Shown piece by piece: positions 12,959-62,170 of a stretch of DNA of 64,000 nucleotides (its first letter is position 1; each line of letters begins with the position of its first letter). The notes beneath the pieces were generated by a model. It saw only the letters and a list, made by a program, of their open reading frames with translations, had not been told where the DNA came from and did not search any database. A program made the translations under genes and the position numbers. Source of the DNA: Tepidiforma bonchosmolovskayae (lineage in GTDB: Bacteria > Chloroflexota > Dehalococcoidia > Tepidiformales > Tepidiformaceae). The stretch spans positions 868,001 through 932,000 of the forward strand of contig NZ_CP042829.1 of NCBI RefSeq assembly GCF_008838325.1, in the 5' to 3' direction.

Positions 12959-13014
12959 GGCGGCTCCCGGGTGGTGCGGTGGTGCTGGGTGTCGTAGAGC
13001 AAGGGTAGCAGGGT

Positions 13015-13171
13015 GAGCGGGGAGCGGGGAGCAGGGTGCGGGGAGCGGGGAGCAGGGAGCAGGGAGCAGGGAGCAGGGAGCAGGGAGCGGGGAGCGGGGA
13101 GCAGGGAGCGGGGAGCAGGGAGCGGGGAGCAGGGAGCGGGGAGCAGGGAGCGGGGAGCAGGGAGCGGGGAG
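13015..13171 (+). repeat. Heptanucleotide tandem array (GGGAGCR)n, about 22 units
   Basis: A perfect or near-perfect run of GGGAGCA and GGGAGCG units fills most of the space between glyA and the methyltransferase gene. One variant unit (GGTGCG-like) occurs near the left end. The array directly abuts the TAA stop of the minus-strand methyltransferase. Runs of GGG every seven bases on the plus strand meet the usual G-quadruplex rule. Units are tandem without spacers, so it is not a CRISPR. It resembles the short tandemly repeated heptamer arrays known from filamentous cyanobacteria. Confidence 0.97.
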
Positions 13172-13867
13172 TTAGCGGGCCCGGCGGAAGACGAAGAGGG
13201 CGTGGCCCTGCTCGCCGCGTTCGTAGGCCTGGACGAGGTAGGCGACAGCATCGAGCTGGCGGAGGTAGGTGCGGGTGCCGTAGCGCTCTTCGAAGTAGGG
13301 GCGGCGGCGGACGAGCTCGGCTTCGGCGACGCGCCAGGTGTGGGCGGCCTCGGCGCTCAGGGGGCGGTGGGCGGCGAGCTGCCAGCCGGCCCGCTCCCAG
13401 TCTTCAATGAAGGCATCGAGGCCGCCGCGGGAATCGGAGGGGGCTTCGCAGCAGAGGCAGAGGGTGGCGCCGGGCGCGGCGACGCGGTTGAACTCGTGGT
13501 AGGCGATTTCGGTGTCGAGCGCCCAGATGCTGTCGAAGGCGGCGTCGCGGAAGGGCAGGCGGCGGTTATCGGCGGCGACCCAGCGGACGGCGCTGCCGCC
13601 GGGGAGGTCGCGGCCGGCGGCGAGGAAATCGGGGTTGATGTCGGTTGCGATGGCGATGCAGCCGGTCTGTTCGGCGGCAAGGCGGGCGGTTGCGCCGACG
13701 AAGGCGCCGGCATCGAGCATCCGCCTGCCGGGGCCGAGGCCGGAGCGCTGGAGGAGCCAGCGGGTGGTTTCGATGCCGCCGACGTGGTTGTGCTCGCCGA
13801 GGAGGTCGATCCACCAGGCGGCGTAGTCGTCGGCGAGGCGCTGGAGGGCCGGATGGGCGGCGGGCAC
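13172..13867 (-). CDS. Class I SAM-dependent methyltransferase
   Basis: 231 residues from a GTG start. Motif I is MLDAGAFVGATARLA, the acidic residue of motif II is in IAIATDINPDFL, and motif IV-like is in FRDAAFDSIWALDTEIAYHEFNRV. This is the Methyltransf_11 fold; the substrate is unknown. The GTG at 13867 was chosen because TATCCT lies 6 nt before it and no other start is available downstream without losing the N-terminal helix. The 3' end touches the heptamer array. It is divergent from the small gene at 13935. Confidence 0.8.
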   Translation of the reverse strand: MPAAHPALQRLADDYAAWWIDLLGEHNHVGGIETTRWLLQRSGLGPGRRMLDAGAFVGATARLAAEQTGCIAIATDINPDFLAAGRDLPGGSAVRWVAADNRRLPFRDAAFDSIWALDTEIAYHEFNRVAAPGATLCLCCEAPSDSRGGLDAFIEDWERAGWQLAAHRPLSAEAAHTWRVAEAELVRRRPYFEERYGTRTYLRQLDAVAYLVQAYERGEQGHALFVFRRAR

Positions 13868-51024: not shown

Positions 51025-51058
51025 GAACGGCCCGGCGGAGCTGATCACCGGGCCGTTC
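51025..51058. promoter_or_regulatory. 11-bp perfect inverted repeat between dnaA and sigma gene
   Basis: GAACGGCCCGG (51025-51035) pairs with CCGGGCCGTTC (51048-51058) around a 12-base loop. It starts at the dnaA stop and ends next to the sigma -10. No T run. It may be a dnaA terminator or a regulator's operator on the sigma promoter. Confidence 0.6.
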
Positions 51059-52358
51059 AGGCGATGGCGCGCTGGCGGAGGGCGGGGTGCTGGCCGAGGA
51101 GGGCGAGGCCCTTCCGGCTGAGGGCGCTGACGGTGCTCTTATCGCGGCCGCCGAGGAGGGCGCCGACCTGGGCGAGGCTGAGGCCGTGCTCCTGGAGGAG
51201 GGCGGCAGCGACGGCGCGGGCTTCGCCGACGCGGGCACCGCGGGCGCGGCCGGCCAGGTCGCCGGAATCGACGCCGAAGTAGCGGGCGACCCGCTCGAGG
51301 AGCTCGGCGGTCGGCTCGGCGCCGGCGGCTTCGGCGATGGCGACGCGGGCGATTTCGGCATCGAGGCGGGCGAGGTCGAGCCGGCCGACACGCTGGAGTG
51401 CGATGGCCTGGTTGACGGCGCCGAGGAGGAGGCGGACGGAGGGGGCGCGGCAGCTGGCGAGGCGCTGGACGGCCCAGGCGGGGAGGGCGATGCGATGGCG
51501 GCGGGCGACGCGTTCGATGAAGGCGCGGCGGGCGTCGTCGTCGAACGGTTCGACGCGGGTGACGATGCCCTGGGCGAGGCGGGAAGAGAGGCGATCGAGG
51601 AGGTCGAGGTCGAACGGGTGGCGCTCGGAGGCGACGGCGACGTGGCCGCCGCGGTGCATGACGGCATCGAGTGCAGAGGCGAACTCCTCCTGGGTGGCGC
51701 GGCGGCCGGCGAGCTGCTGGAGGTCATCGAGGAGGAGGAGGTCGACCTCGCGGATGGCGGCGTGGAAGTCGCCCTGGCGGCTGGTGCGGACGCCTTCGAC
51801 GAAGCGGGCGGTGAAGGCGGCGGCATCGAAGCAGGCGACGCGCCGGCCGAGGCGGCTGGCGAGGCAGGCGGCGGCGTGGAGGAGGTGGGTCTTGCCAAGG
51901 CCGGGCGGCCCGTAGACGACGACGGGGGAGGGGGCGCCGGGGACGGCTTCGGCGAGGTCGCGGATGGCGTGGAAGGCGAGGAGGTTGCCTTCGGAAGGCT
52001 GGTATTCGTCGAAGGTGTAGCGGCAGTTGACGTTGCCGAGGATTTCGCCGGCTGGGCGGGCGGCAGCGGGGTCGATGCCGGGGCCGACGATGGTGACGGC
52101 GACGTCGCCGAAGACCTGGGCGACGGCGCGCTCGATGACGGGCCGGAGGCGGGTATCGAGCCAGTCGCGGGCGATGTCGTTGGGGGTTTCAATGGCGAGG
52201 GTGGCGCCGTCGAAGGAGCGCGGACGGGCGCCCTTGAGCCAGGTGGCGAAGGTGTGCGGGTTGAGCTGGACCTCGAGGCAGCCGAGGACGGCGCGCCACG
52301 AGCGGGCGAGGTGGCGGGGTTCGCTGCTCGCACTGGCGGGTTCCAACGGCACACACAC
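51057..52358 (-). CDS. dnaA: Chromosomal replication initiator DnaA
   Basis: 433 residues from GTG 52358, with a GGAGGAAGGAG ribosome site. Domain I (TFATWLKGARPRSFDGATLAIETPN), AAA+ with Walker A GPPGLGKTHLL, Walker B LLLLDDLQQLAG, and domain IV (LSLAQVGALLGGRDKSTV) are all present. DnaA opens the origin. Domain IV differs from the usual: GGRDHTTV reads GGRDKSTV and the Gln of RPRQ is replaced, both at residues that touch the DnaA box. No DnaA-box cluster is visible nearby. Possibly a second DnaA, though full length is preserved. Confidence 0.9.
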   Translation of the reverse strand: MCVPLEPASASSEPRHLARSWRAVLGCLEVQLNPHTFATWLKGARPRSFDGATLAIETPNDIARDWLDTRLRPVIERAVAQVFGDVAVTIVGPGIDPAAARPAGEILGNVNCRYTFDEYQPSEGNLLAFHAIRDLAEAVPGAPSPVVVYGPPGLGKTHLLHAAACLASRLGRRVACFDAAAFTARFVEGVRTSRQGDFHAAIREVDLLLLDDLQQLAGRRATQEEFASALDAVMHRGGHVAVASERHPFDLDLLDRLSSRLAQGIVTRVEPFDDDARRAFIERVARRHRIALPAWAVQRLASCRAPSVRLLLGAVNQAIALQRVGRLDLARLDAEIARVAIAEAAGAEPTAELLERVARYFGVDSGDLAGRARGARVGEARAVAAALLQEHGLSLAQVGALLGGRDKSTVSALSRKGLALLGQHPALRQRAIA

Positions 52359-56481: not shown

Positions 56482-57365
56482 GCCTGCACCCGCTGGAACC
56501 GCCGCAGGACCAGTCCGAGGGCGGCGCCGGCGTGGAGGGCGGCGAGGAGGGGGTAGGTGGCGATGGGGAGGTCGGCGCGGGCCTGGATCGCATCCGGACC
56601 GGGGTCGCGGGCAAAGATCGCGAGGGCGACACCGTAGAGGAGGTCAAAGGGGCTGAACCAGGCGGCGTAGCGGCCGGCGCCGCCGCCGATTTCGACGAGG
56701 ATTGCGGCGAGGGGGAGGGTGACGAGAAACCAGGCGGCGATGCCGACGGTGGCGTAGGCGCGGCGGCCGGCCCAGGCGGCGATGGCGAGCGAGCCGAGGC
56801 CGGCGACGGCGGCGATGGCCAGGCCGGCGGCGAGCGACTGCGGGAGTTCGCGCCAGTGGTCGGCGACGTAGCCGGCGAGGTCGTCGCTGGCGAGGCCGTT
56901 GCCGATGACGAGGAGGAGGAGCGGGCCGAGGGTGAGGACCGCGAGGGCGGTGATGAAGGCAGCGGCTTTGGCAAGGGCGTAGTCGGAGCGGAGGAGGGGG
57001 CGGGAGAAGTAGAGCGCCAGGGTGCGGTAGCGGAGGTCGCGGCCGAAGACCTCGGGGGCGACGCCGGCGCAGAAGAGGGCGACCGGCACCTCGCTGTAGC
57101 CGAGGTAGTTCCAGGGGGCGATGATATCGACCCGGCTGCCGAGGAGGGCGGCGACGCCGAGCTGGATGAGGGCGGGGATGAACGCGAAGGCGGTGACGGT
57201 GAAGGGGATGACCTTGGCGCCCGTGCGGCGGCCGATTCCGAAGCAGCCGCGGAGGGTGAAGGTGTAGAGCGCGAGGGCGGCGGCCGGGCGGCCGAGGCGG
57301 GGGCCCTCGTAGGTGCGGTAGCCGAGGTCGTAGATGGCGCCGGCGCGGGGGTCAGCGGGCGGCAA
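56478..57365 (-). CDS. ABC-2 type transporter permease (TTG start)
   Basis: 295 residues from TTG 57365, which overlaps the end of the upstream ATPase by 14 bases. GAIYDLGYRTYEGPRLGR at the N terminus and six hydrophobic segments (FIPALIQLGVAALLG, AFITALAVLTLGPLLLLVIG, AIAAVAGLGSLAIAAWAG) mark an ABC-2 permease; YFSRPLLRSDYALAKAA is the family element before a helix. No ATG or GTG start fits, because the frame upstream belongs to the ATPase shadow. The end overlaps the next ATPase. Confidence 0.85.
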   Translation of the reverse strand: MPPADPRAGAIYDLGYRTYEGPRLGRPAAALALYTFTLRGCFGIGRRTGAKVIPFTVTAFAFIPALIQLGVAALLGSRVDIIAPWNYLGYSEVPVALFCAGVAPEVFGRDLRYRTLALYFSRPLLRSDYALAKAAAFITALAVLTLGPLLLLVIGNGLASDDLAGYVADHWRELPQSLAAGLAIAAVAGLGSLAIAAWAGRRAYATVGIAAWFLVTLPLAAILVEIGGGAGRYAAWFSPFDLLYGVALAIFARDPGPDAIQARADLPIATYPLLAALHAGAALGLVLRRFQRVQA

Positions 57366-58272
57366 CGGCGGCCTCCAGTTCGGGACGGAAGAGGTCTTCG
57401 AGCGCCTGGCGGCGGCGTTCGAGGCGGATGAGGCCGCAGTTGAGGTCGGCGGCGGCGTCGCGGACGGCATCGAGGACGTGGTCGCCGGCGACGGGGAGGA
57501 GGAGGTACCGCCCGTCGCGTTCGACGCGAAAGCCCTGGGCGCGGAGGGCGTCGGCGAGGGCGTCGTCGTCGCCTTCGACCTCGACGAGGAGGGTGCCGGT
57601 GGCGGCCGTGAAATCGGCGAGCGGCCCCTGGCGGAGGAGGCGGCCCCCGTCGATGACGACGACCTGGTCGCAGACGCGCTCGATTTCGCCGAGGAGGTGG
57701 GTCGCCATGACGATGGAGATGCCGAATTCGCGGCCGGTGCGGCGGACGAGGTCGAGCATGTCGTCGCGGCCGGCGGGGTCGAGGCCGTTTGTCGGCTCAT
57801 CGAGGAAGAGCAGGCGGGGGTCGTGGACGAGCGCCTGGGCGAGCTTGACGCGCTGCTTCATGCCGGTGGAGTAGCCGCGGATCTCGCGGTAGCGCTCTTC
57901 GAAGAGGCCGACGTGGCGGAGGGTTTCGGCGGTGCGCTCCCGGGCGGCGTCGCCGGGGAGGCCGGTGACGCGGGCCATGTGGGCGACGAACTCGGTGGCG
58001 GAGACGTCGCCGGGGAGGCAGTCGTGCTCGGGCATGTAGCCGACGAACTGGCGGAGTTCGGTGCCCTGCGCGGCGACGTCGTAGCCGAGGACGCGGGCGG
58101 TACCGGACGTCGGGGGGAGGAGGCCGAGGAGGATGCGGATAAGGGTGGATTTGCCGGCGCCGTTGGCGCCGACGAGGCCGGTGATGCCGGCCGGGACGGC
58201 GAGGTCGAGCTGCTCGAGGGCGGTGATGGTGCCGAAGCGGCGGGTGAGCCCGGCGGTTTCGATGATGTGCAC
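57352..58272 (-). CDS. ABC transporter ATP-binding protein
   Basis: 306 residues. Walker A GANGAGKSTLI, signature YSTGMKQRV, Walker B LLFLDEPTNGLD. First gene of the operon with two ATPase-permease pairs, so either two exporters or a heteromeric one. The gene starts right after the composite repeat region. Confidence 0.94.
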   Translation of the reverse strand: MHIIETAGLTRRFGTITALEQLDLAVPAGITGLVGANGAGKSTLIRILLGLLPPTSGTARVLGYDVAAQGTELRQFVGYMPEHDCLPGDVSATEFVAHMARVTGLPGDAARERTAETLRHVGLFEERYREIRGYSTGMKQRVKLAQALVHDPRLLFLDEPTNGLDPAGRDDMLDLVRRTGREFGISIVMATHLLGEIERVCDQVVVIDGGRLLRQGPLADFTAATGTLLVEVEGDDDALADALRAQGFRVERDGRYLLLPVAGDHVLDAVRDAAADLNCGLIRLERRRQALEDLFRPELEAAVAAR

Positions 58273-58290: not shown

Positions 58291-58446
58291 GAGGGGGGAG
58301 GGAGGAGGGAGCCCCGCGTCCGCCGCTCCGCCCCGCCGAGGGAGGAGGGAGGAGGGAGCCCCGCGTCCGCCGCTCCGCCCCGCCGAGGGAGGAGGGAGCG
58401 GGGAGCGGGGAGCGGGGAGCGGGGAGCGCAGACCATCCCTCGTCAG
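58291..58446 (+). repeat. Composite G-rich repeat with 30-bp direct duplication
   Basis: The 30-base segment at 58311-58340 (starting GCCCCGCGTCCGCCGCTCCG) recurs perfectly at 58358-58387, a period of 47. GGGAGGAGGGA spacers lie before each copy. Five perfect GGGAGCG heptamers (58394-58428) follow, and the element closes with GCGCAGACCATCCCTC, which recurs in the element at 60689. Confidence 0.95.
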
Positions 58447-58472
58447 TTAGGGCGGGGTTACACGGAATCGTG

Positions 58473-58478
58473 TACACT
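58473..58478 (+). promoter_or_regulatory. -10-like TACACT before HTH gene
   Basis: TACACT is followed by 6 nt and GTG 58485. It overlaps the palindrome GTGTACAC (58470-58477), which could be an operator of the HTH protein. Confidence 0.4.
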
Positions 58479-58484
58479 GCCCGC

Positions 58485-58877
58485 GTGGAAGAACGGGAAC
58501 GGTACGCGGCGGGCGGAAGCACGGGGGGCGGGAGCGGGTGGACGCCGGAACGGGTGACAGCGCTCCGGCGGCGGCTGGGGCTGACGCAGGCGGAGTTCGC
58601 CCGGCGGCTCGGGGTGCGCCAGCAGACGGTCTCGGAGTGGGAGACGGGCCTCCACCGGCCGCGCGGGGCGAGCACGACGCTCCTCCGGATGCTGGCGGAG
58701 GAGGCCGGGAGGTGGGAGGAGGGAGCCCTACCCCTGCGTCCCAACCCCGCCGAGGGAGGAGGGAGCCCCGCCCGGCCCTGGCCCCGCCCCGAGGGAGGAG
58801 GGAGCGGGGAGCGGGGAGCGGGGAGCGGGGAACTGGGAGCGGGGAGCGGGGAGCAGGAAGCGGGGGACGGGCGATGA
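58485..58877 (+). CDS. Small XRE-type HTH protein with repeat-derived tail
   Basis: 130 residues from GTG. The helix-turn-helix lies at about residues 23-73: ALRRRLGLTQAEFARRLGVRQQTVSEWE, a Cro/C1 fold. The last 45 residues are read from a heptamer element and give low-complexity Gly/Ser/Glu ([17 protein letters not shown]). GTG 58470 would add five residues. The TACACT site gives GTG 58485. Probably a repressor; targets unknown. Confidence 0.65.
   Translation: MEERERYAAGGSTGGGSGWTPERVTALRRRLGLTQAEFARRLGVRQQTVSEWETGLHRPRGASTTLLRMLAEEAGRWEEGALPLRPNPAEGGGSPARPWPRPEGGGSGERGAGSGELGAGSGEQEAGDGR
58712..58866 (+). repeat. Composite G-rich repeat inside HTH gene
   Basis: GGGAGGAGGGAGCCC blocks, a GC-rich segment and GGGAGCG/GGGAACT-type heptamers repeat the layout of 58291-58446, but diverged. 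The element makes up the 3' part of the HTH gene and ends a few bases before its stop. Confidence 0.9.
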
Positions 58878-58886
58878 GGGAGGGGC

Positions 58887-60050
58887 ATGATGGGCAGGGG
58901 TGAGGCGGTGCGGGCCCGGGGGGCACGGCCCGGGCGGGAGGCGCTGCCGTTCCGGGACGAGGCGGAGCTCCAGGCGGCGTGGGGCCGCGGGCCGGCGGGG
59001 CCGCTCCGGCTGGCGGACGGCCGCACGGCACGCGTCGTGTTCCCCGGGGTGCCCGGCGACGGGACGGGGCCGGACTTCCGCGGCGCCATCGTGGAGGTCG
59101 AGGGCGACCTCCTCCGCGGCGATGTCGAGCTGCACCTCCGCCACTCGGGCTGGTTCGCGCACGGGCACGACCGCGACCCGGCCTACGCCGGCGTCGCCCT
59201 CCACGTGGTGGCGGGGAACGACCTGCCGCTCCGGGCCACGCCCCACAGGGGCGTGCGGCGGGTGCCGCTGCTCGTCTTCGCGCCGGCGCCGGCGGGGACG
59301 CCGGCAGCGTTCGTGCCGCCGTGCGCGTTCGCCCGGGCGGCCGGGCTCGACGTCGAAGCGACGCTGGCCCGGATGGGGGTCCGGCGGCTGCGGATGAAGG
59401 CGAACCGCGCTGCGCTCCTCGCGGCCGCGCGCGGACCCGGGACGGCGCTCTTCGCCCTGGCGGCCGAGGCGCTGCTGGGGCCGGCGCACCGGGCGCTTGC
59501 GCGGGCGGTGCAGGAGCAGCCCGGGCTCGGCGGGCTGCTCGAGGCGGGGGCGGGATACGGCGGCGAGGAGCGCGCGCTGGCGATGACGGCAGCCCTCCGC
59601 GCGGCCGCCGGGCCGCTCCGGGCGGGGGGACGGGTGCGCCCGGCGGCGGCCCCGGCGGCGCGGCTCGGGGCGCTCGGGGCGCTGGCCGCGCGGTGGTGGC
59701 CCCGAGGGTCGGACGGCGGCTGGCCGGCGCTGCTGACGCCGGGCGCGGGCTGGCAGGCCGCCCGGGCGCCGGGCATCGGCCGGGGCGCGGCGATCGAGGT
59801 GGCGGCGAACGCGGTCATCCCGGCGGCGCTGGGGACCGGCGCGTGGCCGGAGGAGGCGGCGCTGGAGGCGTGGGCGGCGCTCCCCTCGCCGGGAACGTAC
59901 GGGAAGCTCCGCCCGCTCGAACGGTGGCTCGGCGGGCTGGACAGCCGGCCGTTCGGGTCGGCGGGCCGGCTCCAGGGCGGGCTCCTGCTCCAGGCCGACT
60001 ACTGCGAGAAGGGCGCCTGCGGCCGCTGCCCGCTCTCGCCGCCGGCCTGA
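58887..60050 (+). CDS. DUF2851 family protein
   Basis: 387 residues. FRGAIVEVEGDLLRGDVELHLRHSGWFAHGHDRDPAYAGVALHVV is the family core and resembles a nuclease-like or beta-sandwich fold; the C terminus has the conserved pattern YCEKGACGRCPL with three cysteines that could bind a metal or cluster. Members occur in Chloroflexota and Bacteroidota. The function is not known. The gene is eight bases after the HTH gene and overlaps the GNAT gene at its 3' end. Confidence 0.85.
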   Translation: MMGRGEAVRARGARPGREALPFRDEAELQAAWGRGPAGPLRLADGRTARVVFPGVPGDGTGPDFRGAIVEVEGDLLRGDVELHLRHSGWFAHGHDRDPAYAGVALHVVAGNDLPLRATPHRGVRRVPLLVFAPAPAGTPAAFVPPCAFARAAGLDVEATLARMGVRRLRMKANRAALLAAARGPGTALFALAAEALLGPAHRALARAVQEQPGLGGLLEAGAGYGGEERALAMTAALRAAAGPLRAGGRVRPAAAPAARLGALGALAARWWPRGSDGGWPALLTPGAGWQAARAPGIGRGAAIEVAANAVIPAALGTGAWPEEAALEAWAALPSPGTYGKLRPLERWLGGLDSRPFGSAGRLQGGLLLQADYCEKGACGRCPLSPPA

Positions 60051-60676
60051 CGGGTCCGGAGGTCCATCGGGGCGCCGGGCGCCCGGCGGAAGACGAACGC
60101 CCGCACCTGCCAGCGGCCCTCGTGGAAGCGGATATGGCCGGCGAGCGGGGCGCGCTCCTGCTCGGTGACGCGCCAGAGCCGCTCGGCAACCTCGCGGTCG
60201 ACCTGCCAGCGGGTTTCGACGATGCGGAAGCCGAGGGCGAGGTAGGCGCGGTGGGCGTGGACGGCAAAGGTGTTCGAGGTGAGGACGAACTCGCGGCCGG
60301 GGAACTCCTGCTCGAGGGCGCGCATCAGGACCGCGAGCATGCGGCGGGCGACGCCGCGGCCCTGGTGCTCGGGCGGGACGTGGACGGCCCAGAGGTAGAG
60401 CCCGGCGGGGTCTTCGAGGTTGACGGAGCAGCGGCCGACCGCGCGGCCGGCTTCGACGGCGACGTAGTGGCGGTGGCGGCCTGGCGCAGTGTGCTCGGCG
60501 AGGGCGGCCGCTGCGCGGGCGGGGTCGCGGAGGTGGCCGAGGTCGAAGGCGTGGTAGGGGAAGCCGTATTCGCCCCAGCGGGCCATCTGGGCGACGAGGT
60601 CGGCGTCCCAGGGGCGGAGGGTGAGCCCTTCGCCCTCGAGGAGGGGAACCGGTGCCCGGGAGGGTTCGGCGGCCAC
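59999..60676 (-). CDS. GNAT family N-acetyltransferase
   Basis: 225 residues from GTG 60676. GLTLRPWDADLVAQMARW opens a GNAT fold; VPPEHQGRGVARRMLAVLM is the acetyl-CoA loop and NTFAVHAHRAYLALGFRIVE the closing element. The longer upstream frame would read the G-rich repeat as protein; TATACT, 6 nt before GTG 60676, decides for the short start. The 3' end overlaps the DUF2851 gene by about 52 bases. Confidence 0.8.
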   Translation of the reverse strand: MAAEPSRAPVPLLEGEGLTLRPWDADLVAQMARWGEYGFPYHAFDLGHLRDPARAAAALAEHTAPGRHRHYVAVEAGRAVGRCSVNLEDPAGLYLWAVHVPPEHQGRGVARRMLAVLMRALEQEFPGREFVLTSNTFAVHAHRAYLALGFRIVETRWQVDREVAERLWRVTEQERAPLAGHIRFHEGRWQVRAFVFRRAPGAPMDLRTRQAGGESGQRPQAPFSQ

Positions 60677-60682
60677 AGGGGA

Positions 60683-60688
60683 AGTATA
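60683..60688 (-). promoter_or_regulatory. -10 element TATACT, leaderless GNAT gene
   Basis: On the minus strand TATACT is followed by 6 nt and GTG 60676. It is the closest match to TATAAT in the leaderless group and excludes the repeat-coded extension. Confidence 0.55.
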
Positions 60689-60798
60689 GGGAGGAGGGAG
60701 GAGGGAGCCCCGCCACCCGCACCGGCACCGCCCCGGGGGAGCGGGGAGCGGGGAGCGGGGAGGGGGGAACGGGGAGCGGGGAGCGCAGCTCATCCCTC
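60689..60798 (+). repeat. Composite G-rich repeat upstream of GNAT gene
   Basis: GGGAGGAGGGAGGAGGGAGCCCCGCC, a CCGCACCGGCACCG segment, and GGGAGCG heptamers (one GGGAACG) end with GCGCAGCTCATCCCTC, as in the 58291 element. It lies between divergent genes. Confidence 0.93.
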
Positions 60799-60892
60799 AT
60801 CCCTGAGGCCTGTTCCCGCGGGCGGCGGGGGCGGTCTGGTAGGCTGTGGGTGCCCGCGCTGGCAAGGCGGTGCGGGCGGGGGGTTCGAGAGC

Positions 60893-62170
60893 ATGGGTGA
60901 TGAGTCGACGATGGGGACGCCCAGGGGTGCCGGGGCGCCGGGGGCTTCCGGAAGCCCCGGACCGGGGACGCCGGGTGCGCAGGGGCCGACGCCGGGCGCG
61001 GGCGCACCGGTGGTAGGCTACGGGCCGGGGCTGCAGGCGTGGTACAGCGGGCCGTACCCGCCGCCGGGGGCGCGGGAGAGCACCTGGACCATGATCTGGC
61101 GGACCGGCGTGAAGGCGGTCGTCGCGGCGGGCTGCTTCGGCGTGACGCTGGGATTTGCGTTCTTCCTGCCGGTCATCATCCTTGCGGTCATCATCGCTGC
61201 AGTCTCGGATTCGGGCGGGAACGGCGAGGACGTGGTGTACGGCGAGGCCGGTGCGCCGGGAAAGCTGCTCTCCATCCCGGTGACGGGCGTCATTCTCGGG
61301 GAGGAGCTGGAGCCGGCCGGGTTCTTCGGGCTGCCGGGCGTGGTGTACGGCTACGAGGTGCGGGAGAAGCTGCGGAAAGCGGCCGAGGACAGCGACATTG
61401 CCGGCGTCATCCTCGAGTTCGAGACGCCGGGCGGGACGATCTTCGGGGCGCGGGCGATCGCTGCCGGGATTGAGGAGTACCGCGCGAAGACAGGGAAGCC
61501 GGTGGTGGCGTTCGTCGCGGGGCTGAGCGCCTCGGGCGGGATGTACGCGATGGCGCCCGCGGACCTGATCCTGGCGGACTACGGCAGCCTTGTGGGGAGC
61601 ATCGGCGTGACGATGGGCGCGGTGGAGTACTGGGACGGCATCTTCGCGACCGAAGGCGGCATCCTCGGCGGCGGGGTGACGACGCGGAACGGGATCGTCT
61701 TTCAGCCGATCACGGCGGGCCGTTCGAAGGATGTGGGGGCGCCGTACCGGCCGCTGACGGACCAGGAGAAGGCGGAGCTTCAGCGCGGGGTCGAAAACGA
61801 GTACGCGGAGTTCGTGCGGTACGTGGCCGCCAAACGGGAGATCCCGGAGGCGACAATCCGGGACCGGATCGGGGCGATGGTCTACGACAACGCGACCGCG
61901 CAGGAGCTCGGGCTGATCGACGGGACGGCGGACCGGCCGGAGGCGTACGCGCGGGCGGCGGCGCTGGCGGGGCTCGAGGCGGGGAAGTTCCGGGTTGTCC
62001 GGGAGACCGGCGGCGGGTGGTCCTGGGGCGGGCTGCTGGGGAAGCTGGGGCTCGGGAGCGGGGACCGGGCGGAGGCGCCGGCCGCGGGGCCGACGCGCAT
62101 CTGCTTCCCGGCGCACGCAATTCTGGCCTACTACGGCGACCCGGTGGCGCTCTGCGCGCGGGGGCGGTAG
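60893..62170 (+). CDS. sppA: Signal peptide peptidase SppA-like (S49) protein
   Basis: 425 residues. The first 65 are Gly/Pro/Ala-rich and polar; one hydrophobic region lies at about residues 72-104. The S49 domain starts at VTGVILGEELEP. The nucleophile Ser214 is in LSASGGMY and the Lys base is Lys279 in AGRSKDVGAPY. Single-domain SppA removes remnant signal peptides in the membrane. TAGGCT is about 47 bases upstream. Confidence 0.88.
   Translation: MGDESTMGTPRGAGAPGASGSPGPGTPGAQGPTPGAGAPVVGYGPGLQAWYSGPYPPPGARESTWTMIWRTGVKAVVAAGCFGVTLGFAFFLPVIILAVIIAAVSDSGGNGEDVVYGEAGAPGKLLSIPVTGVILGEELEPAGFFGLPGVVYGYEVREKLRKAAEDSDIAGVILEFETPGGTIFGARAIAAGIEEYRAKTGKPVVAFVAGLSASGGMYAMAPADLILADYGSLVGSIGVTMGAVEYWDGIFATEGGILGGGVTTRNGIVFQPITAGRSKDVGAPYRPLTDQEKAELQRGVENEYAEFVRYVAAKREIPEATIRDRIGAMVYDNATAQELGLIDGTADRPEAYARAAALAGLEAGKFRVVRETGGGWSWGGLLGKLGLGSGDRAEAPAAGPTRICFPAHAILAYYGDPVALCARGR

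What the first reader, a model, noticed from the sequence alone, without database searches (positions are those of the whole stretch)
58291..58446. Composite repeat: a 47-bp period duplication plus heptamers plus a shared terminal box
The 30-bp segment occurs twice perfectly at a period of 47, and the same architecture (GGGAGGAGGGA, GC segment, heptamers, GCGCAG..CATCCCTC end) recurs at 60689 and in part at 58712. Three copies in 2.5 kb with the same orientation suggest a mobile or amplifying non-coding element rather than simple slippage. No transposase is visible here.
Basis: partly seen in the sequence, partly recalled or inferred. Interest (0 to 1): 0.6.

Follow-up and report, generated by a model that had tools for sequence, protein, structure and literature searches.

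The report
Strand-oriented G-rich satellite islands
The odd repeats are three of about 47 short G-rich satellite islands that lie between genes on the half of this bacterium's chromosome around its GC-skew switch, nearly always with the G-rich side on the G-rich strand of that chromosome arm, at the same gene borders in sister species, where they mark places at which the chromosome has been rearranged.

Summary
The repeats are real. E1 (58291-58446) carries a 47-bp unit twice (46/47 identical), then GGGAGCG heptamers and a box shared with E3 (60689). E2 (58712) shares units and heptamers only; a fourth, heptamer-only array lies at 13013. Stretches of the 2.75-Mb genome hold 47 such clusters. 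36 of 38 catalogued sites lie in the 36% of the chromosome around the GC-skew switch (1.297 Mb). Away from that centre, 32 of 33 clusters have the G-rich strand on the G-rich strand of their arm, whatever the gene direction. They are not freely mobile: all 38 G004 array clusters map to G000 gene borders with array sequence, heptamers are species-specific, and an array-free sister has short seeds there. E3 and an oppositely oriented island at 1614 kb are the two ends of a centre-symmetric inversion against G004.

Best explanation: purine seeds on skewed DNA, expanded by slippage and unequal exchange, homogenised by recombination, and serving as substrates for inter-arm inversion. Known kind (G-rich heptamer repeats of Xanthomonas and Nostoc); new: arm polarity, centre clustering, breakpoint role. 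Whether the centre is origin or terminus is contradictory and unresolved.

The parts
58291..58446 (+). Island E1: two 47-bp composite units, a partial third, five heptamers and the end box; it lies between the divergent ABC ATPase and HTH genes
58293..58339 (+). 47-bp unit, copy 1 (purine block plus C-rich block CCCCGCGTCCGCCGCTCCGCCCCGCCGA)
58340..58386 (+). 47-bp unit, copy 2 (1 mismatch to copy 1)
58394..58428 (+). Five GGGAGCG heptamers; the stretch 58387-58428 has G4Hunter 2.07
58426..58441 (+). End box GCGCAGACCATCCCTC; read here as a remnant of the inverted C-rich half seen in islands near the skew switch
58707..58869 (+). Island E2: two diverged composite units plus about nine heptamers; it encodes the C-terminal tail of the HTH ORF
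60688..60805 (+). Island E3: one composite unit, about seven heptamers and the end box (60783-60798), between divergent GNAT and S49 peptidase genes; one end of the inversion between G000 and G004
13013..13173 (+). Fourth island in the window: about 22 heptamers (GGGAGCA/GGGAGCG) and no composite unit
57352..58272 (-). ABC transporter ATPase (PF00005), left flank of E1
58470..58877 (+). HTH_3 protein; E1 lies upstream and E2 runs into its 3' end
58887..60050 (+). DUF2851 protein
59999..60793 (-). GNAT acetyltransferase ORF; the real start is probably near 60676, because the ORF as listed reads into E3
60893..62170 (+). Peptidase S49 (SppA-like), right flank of E3; elsewhere in the genome in G004

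Best explanation
E1-E3 belong to a family of intergenic G-rich satellite islands. Short purine seeds (GGGAG/GGAGG tracts) at gene borders, which composition alone makes strongly arm-polar, grow by replication slippage and unequal exchange into heptamer arrays and 39-55-bp composite units. Exchange between islands homogenises them within each species. Islands on opposite arms are inverted repeats, so recombination between them inverts the central segment; such inversions keep both arm balance and island polarity and are tolerated. I see no need for a dedicated host function. SHOWN: arrays, polarity, clustering around the skew switch, shared sites, species-specific heptamers, breakpoints at islands. 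INFERRED: slippage and conversion as the engine, and the reason growth is confined to the half around the skew switch (fork-associated hyper-recombination if the centre is the terminus, copy number or repair differences if it is the origin).
For: Genome-wide 39 forward and 42 reverse hits of the 20-mer, with no overlap in position. Away from the centre 32 of 33 clusters follow the G-rich strand of their arm (p about 8e-9; clusters). The same rule holds in G004 and in sampled places of G001. Islands occur in every gene context, and in tandem gaps orientation does not follow transcription (13 antisense, 8 sense). 36 of 38 sites lie within 36% of the half-chromosome (KS p about 1e-13); there are none at 430-780 kb against 13 at 780-1200 kb, although skew is alike, and intergenic GGGAG density outside islands is the same near and far (5.4 near and 5.5 far on the left, 5.0 and 5.0 per kb on the right), so seeds and skew do not explain the clustering. 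A third-order Markov model gives 13.3 forward and 0 reverse pair seeds per Mb in the left arm, so composition can set polarity. Sites are shared with G004. Heptamers are species-specific: G000 GGGAGCG/GGGAGCA 65%; G004 GGGAGCT/GGGAGCC 34%; G001 GGGAGTT 23%. Breakpoints: E3 and the 1614-kb island, in opposite orientation, midpoint 1271 kb. Over the whole window against G004 only E3 breaks colinearity; against G001 the breaks at 900.5/904.9 kb, E1 and E3 all have a G001 array at the junction. Seed state in G005.
Against: No reads or populations: expansion, contraction and conversion are inferred from comparison. G002 and G005 have almost no arrays but are draft assemblies, where repeats can be lost. 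Breakpoints tend to be intergenic anyway, so part of the island-breakpoint link is expected. The confinement to the central half is unexplained. Outside the pattern searches the genome was sampled, not read whole.
Confidence: 0.6

Rival explanations
1. Functional polar guide sequences (KOPS/AIMS-like) that tell a DNA translocase or segregation machine which way the chromosome runs.
For: Strict arm polarity and clustering at one pole of the chromosome in three genomes; an FtsK with a gamma domain is present.
Against: Isolated copies of the component octamers are not consistently enriched near the centre; heptamers differ between species; two congeners have almost none; within about 150 kb of the centre both orientations share one gap; about one site per 20-30 kb is sparse. 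If the centre is the origin, the sign is opposite to KOPS.
Confidence: 0.1
2. A non-autonomous mobile element, inserted in one orientation with respect to the fork (as single-strand transposons of the IS200/IS605 kind do).
For: Composite units are dispersed (83-87% identity between islands); G001 has an island at a border that is empty in G000; polarity relative to replication arms.
Against: Sites shared between G000 and G004; no constant ends; no target duplication recognised; seeds in the array-free species; no transposase in the flanks.
Confidence: 0.12
3. Plain microsatellites whose polarity is only GC skew, with no link to rearrangement.
For: The Markov model predicts the polarity of seeds; both orientations occur where skew is near zero.
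Against: Does not explain absence in equally skewed DNA farther out, the dispersed composite units, or breakpoints falling at islands.
Confidence: 0.15

Closest known systems
GGGAATC / GGGGA(T/C)T G-quadruplex heptamer repeats of Xanthomonas and Nostoc (Rehm et al. 2015, PMC4692102)
   Same: G-rich heptamers with four or more G-tracts, intergenic, the same gene borders in related species, strong variation in length and sequence, some inverted pairs.
   Different: That paper reports dispersal over the whole chromosome, both strands about equally, and (for Xanthomonas) no preference for leading or lagging strand, origin or terminus; here there is strict arm polarity and clustering at one pole, 39-55-bp composite units, and islands at rearrangement breakpoints. 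The paper found increased stability around repeats, here the opposite.
Short tandemly repeated repetitive (STRR) heptamers of cyanobacteria
   Same: Heptamer arrays; the exact GGGAGCR four-heptamer pattern occurs in Moorena, Nostoc and other cyanobacteria.
   Different: No composite unit or arm rule is known to me for these; not tested here.
AIMS / KOPS (PMC5993296, PMC2680272)
   Same: Strand-biased and related to chromosome position.
   Different: Those are single octamers, thousands per genome, most abundant and most biased at the terminus; these are a few dozen long arrays with changing sequence.
BoxC / PIT triplex motifs (PMC4666352)
   Same: Intergenic purine-rich inverted repeats linked to instability.
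   Different: A conserved 37-nt consensus with no strand bias in E. coli; not tandem.

Membership tests
G-rich heptamer SSR (Rehm type) | Tandem G-rich heptamers with at least four G3 tracts | tested here: met
G-rich heptamer SSR (Rehm type) | Mostly intergenic and at conserved gene borders in related species | tested here: met
G-rich heptamer SSR (Rehm type) | Whole-chromosome, strand-neutral distribution | tested here: not met
   descriptive of the published cases rather than definitional, hence a variant
G-rich heptamer SSR (Rehm type) | Folds as G-quadruplex in vitro | not testable with these tools
   only sequence scores: G4Hunter 2.0-2.4 for the heptamer stretches of E1-E3
KOPS/AIMS | Octamer biased to one replication strand | tested here: met
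   but many unrelated G-rich octamers are too
KOPS/AIMS | Abundance rises towards the terminus outside arrays | tested here: inconclusive
   GGGAGGAG rises (21.8 against 11.6 per 100 kb), most others do not; origin or terminus identity of the centre is unresolved
KOPS/AIMS | Recognised by FtsK gamma | not testable with these tools
   FtsK gamma is present; binding not tested
Non-autonomous transposon (MITE/REP) | Constant ends or terminal inverted repeats, target duplication | tested here: not met
   island ends differ; the end box is in E1 and E3 but not E2
Non-autonomous transposon (MITE/REP) | Presence/absence at orthologous sites | tested here: inconclusive
   none clear against G004; one island in G001 at a border empty in G000
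CRISPR array | Identical repeats with unique spacers next to cas genes | tested here: not met
   the 'spacer' (C-rich block) is repeated too and the neighbours are not cas genes

The most novel reading that the evidence does not exclude
A self-organising recombination system: arm-polar satellite islands confined to one pole of the chromosome act as a set of matched inverted repeats that let the two arms exchange segments symmetrically, and their polarity and placement are maintained by selection, so that they work as a chromosome-architecture element and not only as tolerated junk.
Probability: 0.12. Interest if true: 0.8.

Novelty: new variant of a known kind. Interest (0 to 1): 0.56.

Why it matters
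It links three things that are usually studied apart: strand-asymmetric composition, growth of simple repeats, and symmetric inversion about the origin-terminus axis. Arm-polar repeats are by construction inverted between arms, so recombination between them gives the symmetric inversions that bacterial genome comparisons show so often. The genus offers array-rich and apparently array-poor species with shared sites, a natural experiment on how satellites start. The sharp limit of the islands to one half of the chromosome, with equal seeds elsewhere, points to a position-dependent mutational process that could be measured.

Tried and rejected
Rfam: no family in the window. Plasmid collection: no match for E1. 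Simple hairpin or terminator: E1 folds no better than shuffles (z -0.7 and -0.5), E3 modestly (z -2.9), and E1 and E3 lie between divergent genes, so they are not terminators; the inverted island at 1411 kb does fold far better (z -8.8). Transcription-driven orientation: rejected. I first took the 1.25-1.30 Mb centre as the terminus from the skew sign and wrote notes in those terms; searches then found rpmH, yidD, yidC, parA, parB and parS sites there, so all statements here refer to the skew switch. Looking for dif or a DnaA-box cluster to settle it failed. Two attempts to fetch regions failed on my coordinates.

Full report
OBSERVATION. Island E1 has two 47-bp units (58293-58339, 58340-58386) that differ at one base, a partial third, five GGGAGCG heptamers and a box GCGCAGACCATCCCTC; E3 (60689) has one unit, heptamers and the same box with two changes; E2 (58707) has two diverged units and heptamers but no box. 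Shuffles never reach the counts. A fourth, heptamer-only array lies at 13013-13173.

EXTENT. The window is G000:C1:868001-932000 of a single 2,746,948-bp contig. The exact three-heptamer 20-mer occurs 81 times, 39 on + and 42 on -; every + place lies at 378-1204 kb and every - place at 1424-1730 kb. The composite unit start GAGGGAGGAGGGAGCCCC occurs 56 times with up to one mismatch. In the fetched stretches the arrays fall into 47 clusters. Between about 1.13 and 1.43 Mb many islands hold both orientations, + (G-rich) units first and - units after, around a short core often containing GAGATGCTCA or GAGCATCTCA; the 'terminal box' of E1 and E3 looks like the stump of such an inverted half. One such island (1411 kb) folds as a very stable hairpin (z -8.8).

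POLARITY. GC skew is positive on the left arm, negative on the right, and switches at about 1.297 Mb. Away from the centre 32 of 33 clusters have the G-rich strand on the arm's G-rich strand. The same rule holds in G004, whose switch lies near 0.5-0.57 Mb, and in sampled places of G001. Islands lie in divergent, convergent and tandem gaps, and in tandem gaps orientation does not follow transcription. Composition is enough to set the polarity of seeds: a third-order Markov model of non-array DNA gives 13.3 forward and 0 reverse heptamer pairs per Mb in the left arm.

POSITION. 36 of 38 catalogued sites lie in the 36% of the chromosome around the switch. Skew and intergenic seed density are the same farther out, where islands are nearly absent. 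So polarity may be passive, but the confinement is not explained by composition.

CONSERVATION. Same-genus genomes G001, G003 and G004 have many G-rich heptamer arrays; G002 and G005 almost none; other genera of the family far fewer. All 38 G004 clusters in the fetched stretches map to a G000 gene border with array sequence (the one without a called cluster, at G000 1118.4 kb, has a short degenerate array). In the other direction, 38 of 47 G000 clusters have a G004 array; five borders mapped without a called array, and the four of these that could be read show short heptamer seeds; four could not be mapped. Heptamers differ by species. In G005 the E1 border reads GTAGGGGAGGGATGAGGGATGAGG and the E3 border AGTGTAAGGGAGGAGGGATGAGGGAGG: seeds without arrays. 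This looks like growth in place, not insertion, with one possible exception: a G001 island at a border that is empty in G000 at 887.9 kb.

REARRANGEMENT. In G004 the left neighbour of E3 (GNAT side) is joined through an array to the 1613.99-kb flank, and the right neighbour (S49 peptidase) through an array to the 1614.3-kb flank. E3 (+) and the 1614-kb island (-) are therefore the two ends of an inversion whose midpoint is 1271 kb, near the skew switch. In a test not chosen around islands, the whole 64-kb window, the G004 counterpart is colinear from 868.0 to 928.8 kb and breaks only at E3; against G001 the moves to another place occur at 900.5/904.9 kb, E1 and E3, each with a G001 array at the junction. 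More junctions at islands were seen in stretches chosen around islands, which is a biased sample. Symmetric inversion is common in bacteria (PMC5850607); what is new here is the repeat set that could carry it.

CENTRE: ORIGIN OR TERMINUS. The usual sign rule (G-rich leading strand) makes 1.297 Mb the terminus. Translation genes support this: tuf at 270 kb (+), rpsB at 2480 kb (-), rpmA at 2440 kb (-) and infB at 2265 kb (-), recognised by sequence motifs, would be co-directional with forks from about 0/2.7 Mb, and tRNAs crowd there. But 1.297 Mb carries rpmH, yidD, at least six parS-like sites in 530 bp, yidC, parA and parB, which normally mark an origin, and 55% of predicted genes in the arms point away from it (319 of 579, p 0.016). 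dnaA (window 51057-52358) is at neither pole. No dif and no DnaA-box cluster was found. I leave this open. If the centre is the terminus, hyper-recombination where forks meet, shown in E. coli (PMC12809603, abstract read), would explain why islands grow there; if it is the origin, the genome has inverted skew, and the cause must be sought elsewhere.

KNOWN KIND. The nearest described class is the G-rich heptamer repeats of Xanthomonas and Nostoc (PMC4692102), which are intergenic and border-conserved but are reported without strand or position preference. This is a variant of that kind. That identification is inference.

Noticed in passing
G000:C1:1295988-1303107 (outside the window; loci L328, L083): rpmH, yidD, at least six parS-like sites, yidC, parA and parB sit at a GC-skew switch that has the sign of a terminus, while tuf, rpsB, rpmA and infB lie near the opposite pole. 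Either inverted GC skew or a displaced parABS cluster.
   Followed up: partly
window 51057-52358 (-): The dnaA gene (best PF00308 match of the genome) lies about 375 kb from the skew switch and 6 kb from E1.
   Followed up: partly
window 58470-58877: The last 50 or so codons of the HTH ORF are array sequence of E2 (tail ...[20 protein letters not shown]), so an island extends a coding frame.
   Followed up: no
L248, L250, L251, L270, L310 (G001 and G003): Islands of G001 and G003 contain a further dispersed hairpin module (CGCGGGGCTCCGTCCCCGCGGAGGGC or close) and (GGAGGTT)n, not seen in the G000 islands read.
   Followed up: no
L268:1-1240 against G000:C1:1418.5-1419.9 kb: G001 and G000 are 97-98% identical here although flanks and typical identity are 82-92%: probably a recent exchange that includes an island.
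   Followed up: no
G000:C1 whole: GC content is highest (0.71-0.76) around the skew switch and lowest (0.64-0.70) at the opposite pole, with skew fading to zero over several hundred kb there.
   Followed up: partly
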